Part shown: in pieces, positions 57,492 through 61,786 of the stretch
How the letters are laid out: each line of letters starts with the position of its first letter
How positions within the stretch are numbered: the first letter of the stretch is position 1
Assembly: GCF_900112315.1 (NCBI RefSeq)
Contig: NZ_FOLL01000002.1
Coordinates: forward strand, 124,001-188,000
DNA: 64,000 nucleotides
DNA from: Parapedobacter composti
GTDB taxonomy: Bacteria; Bacteroidota; Bacteroidia; Sphingobacteriales; Sphingobacteriaceae
Direction of reading: 5' to 3'
Translations under genes and position numbers: made by a program
The notes under the pieces: model-generated
Databases searched by the model: none
What the model was told of the DNA's origin: nothing
Seen by the model: the letters and a program-made list of their open reading frames with translations, nothing else

Positions 57492-58565
57492 ATGTTAGAA
57501 AAGCTGAAAGCCATAAAAGATCGTTGGGAAGAAGTGGAGCGCGAGCTGAGCAATCCTGAAACCATCAACGACATGAAACGGTTTGCCCAGCTCAACAAAG
57601 AGTATAAAGATTTGGGCAAAATCGTCGAACAGTACCATATATACAAAAATATGGTCAGCAACATCGAAACCAACAGGGATATCCTGGCCAACGAAAAAGA
57701 TCAGGAACTGCGGGAAATGGCCAAAGAAGAACTGGACATCCTGCTGGAACAAAAAGAAACGAAAGAGGAAGAAATCCGGTTGATGCTCATTCCGAAAGAT
57801 CCCGAAGACTCCAAAAACGCCATTCTGGAAATCCGGGGAGGTACGGGCGGTGATGAAGCAGCATTGTTCGCGGGCGATCTTTACCGGATGTATACCCGCT
57901 ATTTTGAACAGAAAGGCTGGAGAGCTGAAGTGATGGATGTGACCGAAGGCACGGCGGGCGGTTACAAGGAGGTGATCCTGAAGGTAACAGGCGAAGATGT
58001 GTACGGCCAGTTGAAATACGAATCAGGCGTGCACCGCGTACAACGTGTGCCCGACACGGAGACGCAAGGCAGGGTACATACCTCAGCCGCCTCGGTGGCC
58101 GTATTGCCAGAAGCCGAGGAGGTGGACGTGGAGATCAATCCCGCCGATATTGAGATGCAGACCTCCCGGTCCGGCGGTGCCGGCGGCCAGAACGTGAACA
58201 AGGTAGAAACCAAGGTACAGTTGACCCACAAGCCTACGGGCATTGTGGTCGTATGCCAAGTGGAGCGCTCCCAATTGGCTAACCGCGAATTAGCCATGGA
58301 GATGCTGCGCTCCAAGCTGTATGAGCTGGAGGTGCAAAAAAAGCATGGCGATATCGCCGCCAAGCGGAAAACCATGGTTTCAACGGGCGACCGTTCCGCC
58401 AAGATCCGGACCTATAATTACCCACAGGGGCGGGTAACCGAGCACCGCATCGGATTGACCCTTTACAACCTTCCGGCCATCATGGACGGTGATATTCAGG
58501 AAATTATCGACGCCCTTCAGTTCGCTGAAAATGCCGAGAAAATGAAAGAAGGAGCAACCGCATAA
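57492..58565 (+). CDS. prfA: peptide chain release factor 1
   Basis: 357 residues. The codon-recognition tripeptide PDT is at 187-189 in [10 protein letters not shown], and the GGQ hydrolysis motif at 231-233 in [12 protein letters not shown]-terminal helical domain with [20 protein letters not shown]. Terminates translation at UAA and UAG. No hemK/prmC methyltransferase follows. Confidence 0.97.
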
Positions 58566-58582
58566 ATATTTTTAAAAAAATA

Positions 58583-58612
58583 TTTGCAAATAGAGAAAAC
58601 ACGCTATATTTG
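58583..58612 (+). promoter_or_regulatory. promoter for tRNA-Asp
   Basis: TTTG (58583-58586) and TATATTTG (58605-58612) are exact -33 and -7 boxes with an 18-bp gap, 22 bp before the tRNA. This is the best promoter match in the window. Confidence 0.8.
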
Positions 58613-58634
58613 CAGTCCCAAACGACGGGAAGCA

Positions 58635-58708
58635 GGTCTGGTAGTTCAGCTGGTTAGAATACATGCCTGTCACGCATGGGGTCGCGGGTTCGAGTCCCGT
58701 CCAGACCG
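58635..58708 (+). tRNA. tRNA-Asp (GTC)
   Basis: 74 bases. Acceptor stem GGTCTGG/CCAGACC, D-loop with AGCTGGTTAGA, anticodon loop CTGTCAC giving anticodon GTC, T-loop GGTTCGAGTC and discriminator G. The CCA is not encoded. Confidence 0.97.
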
Positions 58709-58711
58709 CTG

Positions 58712-58744
58712 AGCGGGGGAATTGAAAAATTCTCCCGCTTTTTT
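58712..58744 (+). terminator. terminator of tRNA-Asp
   Basis: AGCGGGGGAATT (58712-58723) pairs with AATTCTCCCGCT (58728-58739), a 12-bp stem with one G-T pair and a 4-base loop, then a run of six T. Confidence 0.8.
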
Positions 58745-58899
58745 GTATAATCTAACAAGCCCCTGCTGCTCTTTGGTTTCTTCCATAACAATATGTTTTA
58801 ATGGTTGGAGGGCTGCTTTACGGCGGTCTTCCATAAATAATCTAATTTTTGCACCCAGATGGTAGACGCAGTTTAAGTTTGTTACTTTGTCGCATGAGC
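58745..58899. other. 155 bp of unassigned sequence after the tRNA terminator
   Basis: No gene that I can support. A minus-strand frame (58670-58933) spans it and runs into the tRNA's complement, so its C-terminus is an artefact; the part here has KIRLFMEDRRKAALQPLKHI, which matches nothing I recognise. Confidence 0.4.
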
Positions 58900-58987
58900 A
58901 TATAAGCTCACCACTTGTACTATTTAAGCTCACAAAACCGATTATTTGAGCTTATAATATTTAAGATAAGAGCTCATTATTAACAGC
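58900..58987. repeat. four 22-bp units with AGCT boxes
   Basis: AGCT occurs at 58905, 58927, 58949 and 58971, exactly 22 bp apart, in the contexts TAAGCTCA, TAAGCTCA, TGAGCTTA and AGAGCTCA. Each unit begins AT and has AGCTYAY after three bases. The last unit runs into the IS66 remnant. Confidence 0.7.
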
Positions 58988-59160
58988 GTGCCGCCATGAT
59001 CTATTCATTCTTCGCCATCTGCAAAAAACACGAAGTCAACCCATTCCACTGGCTGAAATATACACTGGAAAACATCATGGCCATAAACCATAAAAACTTA
59101 AAGGTCCTCTATCCGCAGAACTATAAAAATATGGTTCAGAATCAAACATGTAGTTCGTAG
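58984..59160 (+). pseudogene. C-terminal remnant of an IS66-family transposase
   Basis: The frame reads QRAAMIYSFFAICKKHEV then NPFHWLKYTLENIMAINHK and NLKVLYPQNYKNM, the C-terminal domain of IS66 transposases, before a stop at 59158. A stop codon (58981) precedes it, and the whole N-terminal and DDE region is missing. Only about 54 codons survive. Confidence 0.85.
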
Positions 59161-59170
59161 GGCGGATACG
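59133..59170. mobile_element. IS66-type right end, copy A
   Basis: AAACATGTAGTTCGTA (59144-59159), followed by GGGCGGATACG to 59170, overlapping the transposase stop, which is where the right end of IS66 elements usually lies. Near copy at 59666. Confidence 0.6.
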
Positions 59171-59326
59171 ATGAAAGATTTCCCAGATGAACGGGGGAAT
59201 TTGATCGCTGAAGCGGCGCCCACGAATTACCTTATTGATTAAGATGGGCGGATCGTGTTCAGAGACTTCCTTATCAACGACAAGAACCGGGGCCCTCTGG
59301 AGCTGATGATCTGGCTTGTCGGGTGA
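59171..59326 (+). pseudogene. thioredoxin-like (TlpA/redoxin) C-terminal fragment, interrupted
   Basis: 52 codons with an internal TAA: EAAPTNYLID-stop-DGRIVFRDFLINDK and LELMI. The APTxYLIDxDGRIVF pattern is the C-terminal half of TlpA-type thiol reductases. The CxxC catalytic site is absent, as is most of the gene. It begins right at the IS66 end, which suggests that the element removed the rest. Confidence 0.7.
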
Positions 59327-59654
59327 AGGGGATATGGCTCAATGCCGGTACAATCGCGGAGTGGTACAGGAAAACGTTTTTTGTACTTTTGGTAAACATG
59401 CATCGATGAATGCGGCTGGCTGGGCAGGGACGTCGTCGGAACCTGAAGTCTTGGTAGATTTCTCCCGACTTTTTACTGACTTTCTCCCCACTATTTCCCG
59501 CCGTATCTTTGGGATTGCTTTGCCCCTGCTTTGCTTTTTCTTTGGAATTTTGTGGACACGCCGTGGACCAGCCCAAAGCGGACCGCGGGAGACGGGGGGA
59601 TTTGGTCAGAAGAAAGGGGGTAGTTAAGGTGCTGTTGGCATGCGATAAGATTAG
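59327..59654. other. 328 bp of unassigned sequence between element ends
   Basis: Open frames exist on both strands, but neither reads like a known family. TACTTTTG at 59384-59391 matches the -7 consensus. I see no terminal repeat or RNA gene here. Confidence 0.35.
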
Positions 59655-59694
59655 GGTTCAAAAATTAAACATGTAGTTCGTAAGGTGCATACGT
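59655..59694. mobile_element. IS66-type end, copy B (solitary)
   Basis: The same 16-base core AAACATGTAGTTCGTA (59667-59682 by alignment), then AGGTGCATACG. Same orientation as copy A, 523 bp apart. No transposase is attached, so it is a stray end left by another insertion. Confidence 0.55.
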
Positions 59695-59703
59695 TACGGC
59701 AGA

Positions 59704-60465
59704 TTACAATTCCATCCACTTCAGGAATTCGGGAGCTTTCAGCTTGCTGACAATGACACGTTCTGGGACTTCGACGCTTAATTTTAACACCAGACGCCTG
59801 TTAAAGTAATGTTCAGCCATAACGAGCACATCCCGGTTGATAATGAATTGTCGGTTGGCCTTGAAAAACCGGTAAGGGTCCAATAAAGGTGCTAAATCGT
59901 CAAGAACTTCCCTAATGATATAGCACCGCCCACCTTTGGTATATGCGCTTACCGTACCACCAGCGGAATGGATAAAGGCTACCTCCGATGTCTTCAATGG
60001 AATGATTTTTTCGTTTCTATAAACCAAAAGGCTGTTTTTGTAATTGGGTTGGATACATTTCAGCAGCGCTGCCATCTGTCGCCGCATTTCTGGTTCGCCA
60101 CCCATAACATGTTTCAGGCGCTCATACTTCCGCAGGCTTTTCTCCAGTTTGCCCTCGTCAATGGGCTTCAAAAGGTAATCGATGCCGTTGGCTTCAAAAG
60201 CCCTGATTGCATAGCTATCAAACGCAGTGCAGAATATTACGGGGCACCCCGCATCTGCCACATGAAAAATATCAAAACTCAGCCCATCGGCAAGCTGGAT
60301 GTCTGAAAAAATCAGATCCGGAACAGGATGGTGTTGCAACCATTCGATGGAAGCATTAATCGATGATAAGATGGCTACGACACGCAACCTATCATCCAAT
60401 CGCTCCACCATCGCCTTTAGCTCCTTGGCTGTCTTAACTTCATCCTCAATGATTAGAATATTCAT
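59704..60465 (-). CDS. LytTR-family response regulator
   Basis: 253 residues. Receiver domain with phosphoacceptor Asp55 in DLIFSDIQLAD, acidic pocket EDE at 7-9 and Lys in DYLLKPIDEG. C-terminal LytTR DNA-binding domain with SLLVYRNEKIIPLKTSEVAFIHSAGG and NRQFIINRDVL. It overlaps the kinase gene by 4 bp (ATGA) and forms a two-component system with it. Confidence 0.93.
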   Translation of the reverse strand: MNILIIEDEVKTAKELKAMVERLDDRLRVVAILSSINASIEWLQHHPVPDLIFSDIQLADGLSFDIFHVADAGCPVIFCTAFDSYAIRAFEANGIDYLLKPIDEGKLEKSLRKYERLKHVMGGEPEMRRQMAALLKCIQPNYKNSLLVYRNEKIIPLKTSEVAFIHSAGGTVSAYTKGGRCYIIREVLDDLAPLLDPYRFFKANRQFIINRDVLVMAEHYFNRRLVLKLSVEVPERVIVSKLKAPEFLKWMEL

Positions 60466-61463
60466 GATCCGTTTATTATTAAGGGTACGGCAACCGTGAA
60501 GCGATCTTCTAATTGCCGGACACGGACTTCTAAGCCGGCCAATAGGCGATACCGCTCACGGATGTTACTCAGCCCTGTTCCTGTGCCAATAGGCACGAAT
60601 CGTTTCCGGTTCAGCGAGTTACTCACAGCTAACCAGTTTGCTCCAATAGTATAAATATTGATGGTAAGCGGAGCGGTATCCGCTACCGTATTGTGTTTCA
60701 CGGCATTCTCAATCAACAATTGCAAGGTCATCGGCGGTAGTTTTCTGGCATAACACGCTTCATTTACATCAATGCCTATCACCAACGCATCCTCAAACCG
60801 CTCTTTCAGAATATGCAAATAGGCTTCGGTGAAGTCCAGTTCTTCGCGTAGGGTTACCAGATCCGCCTGCCTGCTGTTCAGCAGGTAACGGTACACTTCG
60901 GCTAAGCGCTGAATGAACTGGCGGGGAACTGGCTCGCTCACCATACTTCGCAAGGTACCTAACGAGTTAAACAGGAAATGCGGATGCACCTGCTCCTGCA
61001 GCAGGGTCAGCCGTGCTTGCAGATTTTCTTTCTTCAATCGTTCGTTTTCGAGCTTGGATTGCTGGCTCATAGCCGCCATCCGCAGCAAATAGGCGATGAA
61101 AAAAAGGAACCCGCCGATAACCATACCGCGCATGAGCAGAAGAAAATGTACTGCGTGCATACCTCGCGGCAGCACTACTACCCGCTCGCGGACTTCCGAA
61201 ACGTCACGGAGGCCATAAAACAGTACCAACGAAATGACCATACAACCGGTGATGGCAACAACGCTCTTCCATCCATAATGCCGGGGGACGGTCAATTGGA
61301 TGACCCACTGGACCAGCAACCAATTCAGGAAGGCGTTGGCAAAAGCCCCTGCAAACGTAAGCAAAGACGCTATCGCCTCCTCACGGTAGCTGCGCAGCAC
61401 ATAACCAAGAAGTGCAACAAAAAGCGAAATAACGAGTCCGGTAAGCGGGTAAAACCGTTTCAT
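60462..61463 (-). CDS. LytS-like sensor histidine kinase
   Basis: 333 residues from MKRFYPLTGLVISLF; the frame runs 41 codons further upstream, but those residues are not membrane-like. Four transmembrane helices come first, then a coiled segment and the His_kinase domain with HPHFLFNSLGTLRSMV, ending in an ATPase domain with LLIENAVKHNTV and GTGTGLSNIRERYRLL. No extracellular sensor domain. Pairs with the LytTR regulator. Confidence 0.9.
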   Translation of the reverse strand: MKRFYPLTGLVISLFVALLGYVLRSYREEAIASLLTFAGAFANAFLNWLLVQWVIQLTVPRHYGWKSVVAITGCMVISLVLFYGLRDVSEVRERVVVLPRGMHAVHFLLLMRGMVIGGFLFFIAYLLRMAAMSQQSKLENERLKKENLQARLTLLQEQVHPHFLFNSLGTLRSMVSEPVPRQFIQRLAEVYRYLLNSRQADLVTLREELDFTEAYLHILKERFEDALVIGIDVNEACYARKLPPMTLQLLIENAVKHNTVADTAPLTINIYTIGANWLAVSNSLNRKRFVPIGTGTGLSNIRERYRLLAGLEVRVRQLEDRFTVAVPLIINGS

Positions 61464-61786
61464 AACACAAAAGTACCGATTTACCGTACAGGATGGCGTT
61501 GCGTACCCATCAAACGGACAAATGGCATGATGGACGGTCCTACTTCCCGGGCGTGATAAAATCGGATAGCCTTGCCTTGACTGCAATGATGAAGTAATTT
61601 GTGCTTACCTTAATGAATGGGCGGGTACAGAACCATCGTCGGCATGTGTGCCGACTACATGCTGCAGGTACACCTACATTACTGGACGCCAACGACCTTG
61701 TGTAGCAGGCCCGTTCCGCGTTCGCCCGACTGCTTCCGGGAAGAAAAAGCCGGCGCATAAAGTTGACGCGGCCAATCGCTTGCGTT

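What the first reader, a model, noticed from the sequence alone, without database searches (positions are those of the whole stretch)
58900..58987. Four AGCT boxes at exactly 22-bp spacing beside an IS66 remnant
AGCT centres at 58905, 58927, 58949 and 58971 lie in TGAGCTTA/TAAGCTCA contexts, and every 22-bp unit starts with AT. Regular spacing of short palindromes resembles an iteron or regulator array. It lies between a tRNA terminator and a transposase relic, so it may come from a mobile element.
Basis: seen in the sequence. Interest (0 to 1): 0.52.

Follow-up and report, generated by a model that had tools for sequence, protein, structure and literature searches.

The report
Orphaned operator of a Fic regulator
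The four regularly spaced boxes look like the left-over control region of a lost gene for a DNA-binding Fic protein; fuller copies sit directly before that gene in many Bacteroidota, and phages carry unexplained stand-alone copies, often right beside tRNA genes.

Summary
In detail: AGCT starts at 58905, 58927, 58949 and 58971, and all four 22-bp units begin with AT. They are best read not as iterons but as half of the operator-like array of a lost Fic gene. A protein-first search for that family (N-terminal winged helix plus Fic domain) gave 80 named loci. Of the 76 with at least 150 bp upstream, 58 carry at least three of four boxes (> > < <) at exactly 22 bp; 100 shuffle rounds gave none. 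Half-site variation tracks the protein's own winged helix (partial Mantel r 0.45, P 0.0002), not its Fic domain, and a TAnnTTTG promoter motif lies at the array end in 58 of 73 loci. Best reading: an autoregulatory operator. Window 58857-58983 is 84% identical to the distal half of such an array in Sphingobacterium chuzhouense; the rest and the gene are missing, and an IS66 fragment starts at 58984. The exact four-box pattern also occurs in 37 viral stretches (four control patterns: 0). Four have the Fic gene; 20 of the other 33 lie 6-12 bp from a tRNA gene. That part is unexplained.

The parts
58901..58910 (+). box 1, forward half-site TATAAGCTCA
   Evidence: compared with half-sites
58923..58932 (+). 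box 2, forward half-site TTTAAGCTCA
58947..58956 (-). box 3, reverse half-site TGAGCTTATA
58969..58978 (.). box 4, AGAGCTCATT; palindromic core GAGCTC, so its direction is ambiguous; the same letters AGAGCTCATT in L057 and L058
58895..58899 (-). TGAGC just left of box 1, facing away; also present beside box 1 in L057 and L058
58857..58983 (+). remnant homologous to the distal half of a Fic-gene operator region and its left flank (84% identity over 127 bp to Sphingobacterium chuzhouense, locus L058)
58984..59169 (+). 3' fragment of an IS66 element abutting the array; the proximal module and Fic gene expected here are missing
58635..58709 (+). tRNA-Asp (GTC), conserved neighbour

Best explanation
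The array is an orphaned operator. Intact loci of the same kind have one or two modules of four half-sites (> > < <, 22 bp or two helical turns apart) in the promoter region of a gene encoding an N-terminal winged helix fused to a Fic domain. Most likely this protein binds its own array as a multimer lying on one face of the DNA and covers the promoter's -7 element, so that it represses its own gene. Shown here: the linkage, the spacing, the half-site, the promoter-like motif at the array end, the covariation with the protein's winged helix, and the homology of the window copy. Inferred: that the protein binds, that the effect is repression, and what relieves it (perhaps nucleotide or target binding by the Fic domain, in which the catalytic histidine position was glutamine in every sequence read). 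In the window the proximal half and the gene are missing and an IS66 fragment abuts the break, so the array is probably without function there.
For: Linkage: of 80 loci found by protein alone, 76 had at least 150 bp upstream; 40 have the exact four-box module, 45 within 1 bp per step, 58 at least three of four boxes; 100 rounds of shuffling gave 0 for both. All 50 exact modules in the 571 kb of the 80 loci lie just upstream of, or (L127) across, the start of the Fic match. DNA-first: of 4 of 395 phylum genomes with the exact module, 3 have the Fic gene beside it. Specificity: in 18 genomes chosen for the gene or the array, a strict three-box pattern hit 16, and every one of its places lies beside the Fic gene or a fragment of it. 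Covariation: half-site differences correlate with winged-helix differences after controlling for the Fic domain (r 0.447, P 0.0002); the reverse control gives r -0.024, P 0.665 (67 loci). Promoter: 62 TAnnTTTG motifs at the array end in 58 of 73 loci, 58 of the 62 at offsets -31, -20, -11 or -9 from the last reverse box; 18 expected from overall density. Spacings 22, 44 and 66 dominate (226, 145, 74 box pairs); some Bacteroidales use 32, 21-22 or 43, still near whole helical turns. Model: mean pLDDT 89.6, winged-helix elements within 2-65. Precedent: the Fic-HTH protein CccR represses its own gene through a long inverted repeat (PMC9755527, passages). Window.
Against: No binding or expression was measured. 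Thirty-three viral stretches have the array without the Fic gene in the DNA held, and of 20 such records searched only 1 gave a winged-helix hit, a weak one, so the array must have another reader or use there. The arrays also fold as RNA hairpins. Box 4 of the window copy departs from the reverse consensus. Eighteen of the 76 loci have fewer than three of four consensus boxes in register; some show variant boxes by eye. The GCTCA core was fixed by the search pattern, so only the flanking positions of the half-site carry information, and the Mantel test does not fully remove shared ancestry. At offsets -9 and -31 (25 of 62) the promoter motif shares its TTTG with the box itself, so it is not independent of the box. 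A Bacteroides plasmid relative (L200, 65% identity) has no boxes in the 300 bp before its annotated start, though that reading frame lacks most of the winged helix.
Confidence: 0.8

Rival explanations
1. The array acts as RNA: boxes 1-4 and 2-3 pair to form a nested hairpin in the leader of the Fic transcript, or between phage tRNAs, and controls processing or translation.
For: Eight arrays folded as RNA have z-scores from -2.57 to -8.58. In six clusters of solo phage arrays the array lies 6-12 bp from tRNA genes.
Against: Inverted half-sites pair by construction. The exact 22-bp pitch within each side is not needed for a hairpin, and 20- and 24-bp versions are absent from viral contigs. Some Bacteroidales have 32 bp on one side and 22 bp on the other, which suits helical phasing better. 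Half-sites covary with the protein's winged helix, and the promoter-like motif lies at the array end at Fic loci, so most of the array would precede the transcript.
Confidence: 0.12
2. Another conserved host regulator, not the Fic protein, binds the array.
For: 19 of 20 phage records with solo arrays gave no winged-helix hit. Consensus boxes are shared by distant members of the phylum.
Against: Half-site variation follows the Fic protein's own winged helix and not its Fic domain. Two of five proteobacterial relatives at about 30% identity show by eye a different repeated motif upstream (L234, L236), and L054 at 43% shows CCTATCA/TGATAGG. The array occurs only beside the gene or its remains in 18 genomes chosen for the gene or array.
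Confidence: 0.1
3. The array is part of the ends or recombination site of a mobile element, or an iteron.
For: It sits among IS66 and other mobile-element remnants, and Fic genes of this family occur on phage contigs.
Against: In the Fic loci scanned the exact modules lie only at the start of the Fic gene, with a promoter-like motif. The IS66 copy does not contain it.
Confidence: 0.04
4. Chance spacing of a common tetramer.
For: AGCT is short and the region is AT-rich; a three-AGCT pattern is not rare genome-wide (4 against 11 in the control).
Against: Homologous arrays in other genomes at 78-93% identity; shuffled and altered-pitch controls at zero for the module.
Confidence: 0.01

Closest known systems
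CccR of Yersinia pseudotuberculosis (PMC9755527; passages seen)
   Same: A Fic domain joined to a DNA-binding domain; represses its own gene by binding a long inverted repeat (AGATAATCAT-N26-ATGATAATCT) in its promoter as a dimer.
   Different: DNA-binding domain at the C-terminus, an active Fic enzyme that AMPylates FtsZ, one inverted repeat; here the winged helix is N-terminal, glutamine replaces the catalytic histidine, and there are mostly four to eight half-sites on a 22-bp pitch.
CbFic2 of Coxiella burnetii (PMC10628234; passages seen)
   Same: Fic protein with a DNA-binding HTH domain; DNA binding is proposed to drive dimerisation.
   Different: No operator array in the passages seen; C-terminal HTH; active enzyme with HPFDDGNGR.
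SoFic anti-phage AMPylator (PADLOC SoFic and PDC-S04 models; PMC12249575, abstract seen)
   Same: Profile match over residues 134-304 (E 3.5e-18).
   Different: The match covers only the Fic part, and the active-site histidine is not kept here. A defence role was not tested.
BlaI/MecI-type winged helix (Pfam Penicillinase_R)
   Same: 15 of 24 winged-helix segments match it at E up to 0.01 (best 2.1e-6). From recall, these repressors bind inverted repeats over their promoters.
   Different: Standalone repressors without a Fic domain; different operator sequence (recalled).
TAACTGA repeats of Beggiatoaceae and Bacteroidetes (PMC4679880, abstract seen)
   Same: Short repeated motif upstream of genes.
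   Different: Different heptamer, direct repeats, upstream of many genes.

Membership tests
Autoregulatory operator of a Fic/HTH protein (CccR type) | array lies in the promoter region of a gene for a Fic protein with a DNA-binding domain | tested here: met
   58 of 76 loci with three or more boxes; winged helix in the model; the window copy itself has lost the gene
Autoregulatory operator of a Fic/HTH protein (CccR type) | inverted half-sites that match the encoded protein's DNA-binding domain | tested here: inconclusive
   inverted half-sites are present and covary with the winged helix, partial Mantel r 0.447, P 0.0002, but binding was not tested
Autoregulatory operator of a Fic/HTH protein (CccR type) | the protein binds the site and represses its own gene | not testable with these tools
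   needs gel shift and reporter assays
Active AMPylating Fic enzyme | histidine of HPFx[D/E]GN[G/K]R (motif from the abstract of PMC2686095 in the listing; its catalytic role recalled) | tested here: not met
   glutamine at that position in 74 of 74 readable sequences; 6 of 80 could not be read
Class II Fic protein | inhibitory motif (S/T)xxxE(G/N) before the Fic core (recalled; TSAIEG quoted for CbFic2) | tested here: met
   SSQIEGN in 74 of 74
Plasmid iterons | direct repeats beside a replication initiator gene | tested here: not met
   mixed orientation; the linked gene is Fic
IS66 end | sequence present in an intact IS66 copy | tested here: not met
   homology to the intact copy starts at 58984

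The most novel reading that the evidence does not exclude
A catalytically altered Fic family (Gln for His) works as a transcription factor with a four-to-eight-site cooperative operator, and phages carry single stand-alone copies of that operator, kept beside tRNA genes, to titrate or exploit the host's Fic regulator.
Probability: 0.25. Interest if true: 0.85.

Novelty: new variant of a known kind. Interest (0 to 1): 0.6.

Why it matters
It turns a curious repeat into a likely operator for a widespread Fic family in the Bacteroidota (at least 577 relatives; two members tested reach no NCBIfam cut-off) whose catalytic histidine is replaced by glutamine, which points to regulation and not AMPylation. 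The 22-bp > > < < code is strict enough to find such loci by DNA alone. The phage solo copies pose a direct, testable question: why would a phage keep one bacterial operator next to a tRNA gene?

Tried and rejected
IS66 origin of the boxes: rejected, homology to the intact copy starts at 58984. Conservation beside tRNA-Asp: rejected, none of the 8 other genomes of the genus has a 22-bp pair of boxes or of AGCT within the 1.35-1.4 kb held downstream (one genome in two pieces). Rfam at gathering scores, window 57500-60500: only the tRNA. TAACTGA repeats: abstract only, a different motif. Phages phi4:1 and Lak-A1 and record MT835539, which matched the DNA around a phage array, show no module in the stretches fetched. 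Phage solo arrays as ordinary promoters: disfavoured, TAnnTTTG is in phase in 2 of 21 solo representatives (L138, L156; a third, L145, has one far out of phase) and in 4 of 4 Fic-linked ones. Winged helix in array-bearing phages: 1 of 20 records, weak (E 0.0025, 21 positions).

DNA-first pattern AAGCTCA-N12-TTTGAGCTT in the family: 13 of 301 genomes, reversed-letter control 0. Inspection: intact Fic beside it in G115, G243 and G130 (which also has a fragment); Fic fragments in G213 and G249; by eye only the gene start in G007; solo arrays in the window's genome, G045, G302 and G175; in G020, G051 and G260 I see no array.

Literature: with operator and sequence terms, listed no paper. Searches listed papers of which I opened four (PMC9755527, PMC10628234, PMC12249575, PMC4679880), in part. 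I found no description of this array there, but the library lacks most subscription papers and preprints.

Full report
What is in the window. AGCT starts at 58905, 58927, 58949 and 58971, exactly 22 bp apart, and each 22-bp unit from 58900 begins with AT. Within the window three such boxes in a row are expected 0.02 times, though genome-wide a near-identical three-AGCT pattern is no rarer than its letter-reversed control (4 against 11). In direction the boxes are forward, forward, reverse, and one with a palindromic core. A tRNA-Asp ends at 58709. An IS66 3' fragment runs 58984-59169, 86% identical to a copy in the same genome whose 508-residue transposase ORF is open. To the left of this point that copy has transposase coding sequence, not the boxes.

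The array exists elsewhere. A DNA search of 100 genomes (the own genome included) matched the array itself in three others (G008 at 87%, G045 at 78%, G007 at 84%). In G008, the same contig as Parapedobacter soli, seven boxes by eye (five by the strict GCTCA/TGAGC rule) lead straight into a gene for a 348-residue protein with a Fic domain (Pfam E 5e-14, residues 204-298) and an N-terminal winged helix. In G007 six boxes lead to what looks by eye like the same gene start, cut short; tblastn did not find it.

Protein-first test. Searching with the protein found the gene in 15 of 201 family genomes at E 1e-60. By eye 14 of these 15 have such boxes upstream; L054, the most distant, shows CCTATCA/TGATAGG in their place. 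Four of the 80 had under 150 bp upstream and were left out. Of the other 76, 40 have the exact module GCTCA-N17-GCTCA-N14-TGAGC-N17-TGAGC, 45 within one base per step, and 58 at least three of four boxes in register; 100 rounds of shuffling gave 0. All 50 exact modules in the 571 kb of the 80 loci lie at the start of the Fic match. Several loci have two modules. Over 382 in-register half-sites from 76 loci the consensus is TnnRGCTCA; the core was fixed by the search pattern.

DNA-first test. The exact module occurs in 4 of 395 genomes of the phylum; 3 have the Fic gene beside it and one (L176) does not in the 3 kb held. In 18 genomes chosen for the gene or the array, a strict three-box pattern hits 16, always beside the Fic gene or its remains. 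So the array looks like a private operator for one gene, not a regulon.

What binds it. Half-site differences between 67 loci follow the winged-helix sequence when Fic-domain divergence is held constant (partial Mantel r 0.447, P 0.0002); the reverse test gives r -0.024, P 0.665. Left out of this test: 6 of 80 loci whose frame could not be read, those with fewer than two half-sites, and near-identical ones. Variant boxes are visible by eye: ATTACGGATCA in L059 and L060, ATCGGCTCA in several Bacteroidales. Of five proteobacterial relatives at about 30% identity, two (L234, L236) show by eye another repeated motif upstream; a Bacteroides plasmid relative (L200) whose frame lacks most of the winged helix shows no boxes.

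How it would work. TAnnTTTG, recalled as the Bacteroidota -7 element, occurs 62 times at the array end in 58 of 73 loci, 58 of the 62 at offsets -31, -20, -11 or -9 from the last reverse box; 18 would be expected from its overall density there. At -31 and -9 (25 of 62) the motif shares its TTTG with the box, so these are not independent of it. Boxes two turns apart on one face, over the -7 element, suggest a multimer that shuts its own promoter. The Fic domain keeps the inhibitory motif SSQIEGN (74 of 74) but has glutamine where the catalytic histidine should be (74 of 74). The model is confident (mean pLDDT 89.6); its best matches in the PDB are FICD and other Fic proteins. CccR is a precedent for a Fic protein that represses its own gene through an inverted repeat (PMC9755527, passages). 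That this family binds and represses is inferred.

What happened in the window. The stretch 58857-58983 is 84% identical over 127 bp to the distal half of the array of Sphingobacterium chuzhouense (L058); nearly the same stretch is 82% identical to S. haloxyli (L057) and 93% over 86 bp to G213 (L034), which has a Fic fragment beside it. Homology stops at 58983, where the IS66 fragment begins. The proximal boxes and the gene are missing, and no Fic gene of this family was found in this genome at E 1e-60. The array is absent beside tRNA-Asp in the other 8 genomes of the genus. To its left, 58757-58849 resembles DNA that in L017 follows a TraN-like ORF (name recalled). The simplest history is a horizontally gained Fic locus that decayed. 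Other arrays without a Fic gene in the DNA held are L019, L025, L032 and L176.

Phages. The exact four-box pattern occurs in 37 stretches of viral contigs. Four control patterns with as many fixed bases (24-bp pitch, 20-bp pitch, outward order, letters reversed) gave 0 each. Four of the 37 have the Fic gene. The other 33 have none in the DNA held and form 15 clusters by spacer similarity; 20 of them, in six clusters, lie 6-12 bp (difference of coordinates) from a tRNA gene, and in 10 of 11 members of the largest cluster, and in L140, the array fills the gap between tRNA-Lys and tRNA-Ile. Two lie inside ORFs (L166, L170) and may be chance. In 20 records searched the central inverted pair occurs at one place each (two with overlapping hits), even at 300 kb, and the winged helix is absent but for one weak hit. 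Of 21 solo representatives only 2 have the promoter-like motif in phase. I cannot explain these copies. A decoy or exploited site for the host's Fic regulator is the boldest reading; an RNA hairpin between tRNAs is the main alternative.

Verdict. The finding is real and most likely regulatory in origin, but in the window it is a relic. The wider system is a new variant of a known kind (an autoregulated Fic/HTH protein) with an unusual operator and an unexplained phage side.

Noticed in passing
L136-L172 (viral contigs): Stand-alone four-box arrays in phages, 20 of 33 within 6-12 bp of a tRNA gene, mostly without the promoter-like motif (2 of 21 representatives have it in phase).
   Followed up: partly
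74 readable Fic loci among L056-L135: Fic motif with glutamine in place of the catalytic histidine in 74 of 74, with the inhibitory motif kept.
   Followed up: partly
window 58757-58849: Remnant resembling DNA that follows a TraN-like conjugation ORF in L017 (name recalled); a sign of a decayed conjugative element.
   Followed up: partly
window 59645-59693: Second copy (82%) of the stretch at 59123-59170 near the IS66 fragment end, about 520 bp further on.
   Followed up: no
window 59704-61586, minus strand: LytTR response regulator and histidine kinase genes side by side, an ordinary two-component pair.
   Followed up: no
L060 and L056: In Arcticibacter (L060) the first ATG of the Fic frame is followed two codons on by an in-frame TGA, so the true start is probably the later ATG (MAR, MAE in L056), which puts the last box wholly upstream of the gene.
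   Followed up: no
L149, L153, L171, L172; by eye also L046 and L047: The Fic gene with its array sits near a small conserved ORF and, in L149 and L153, a long ORF that looks like a phage tape-measure protein (recalled), as if carried as phage cargo; L025/L145 has a solo array beside the same small ORF.
   Followed up: partly
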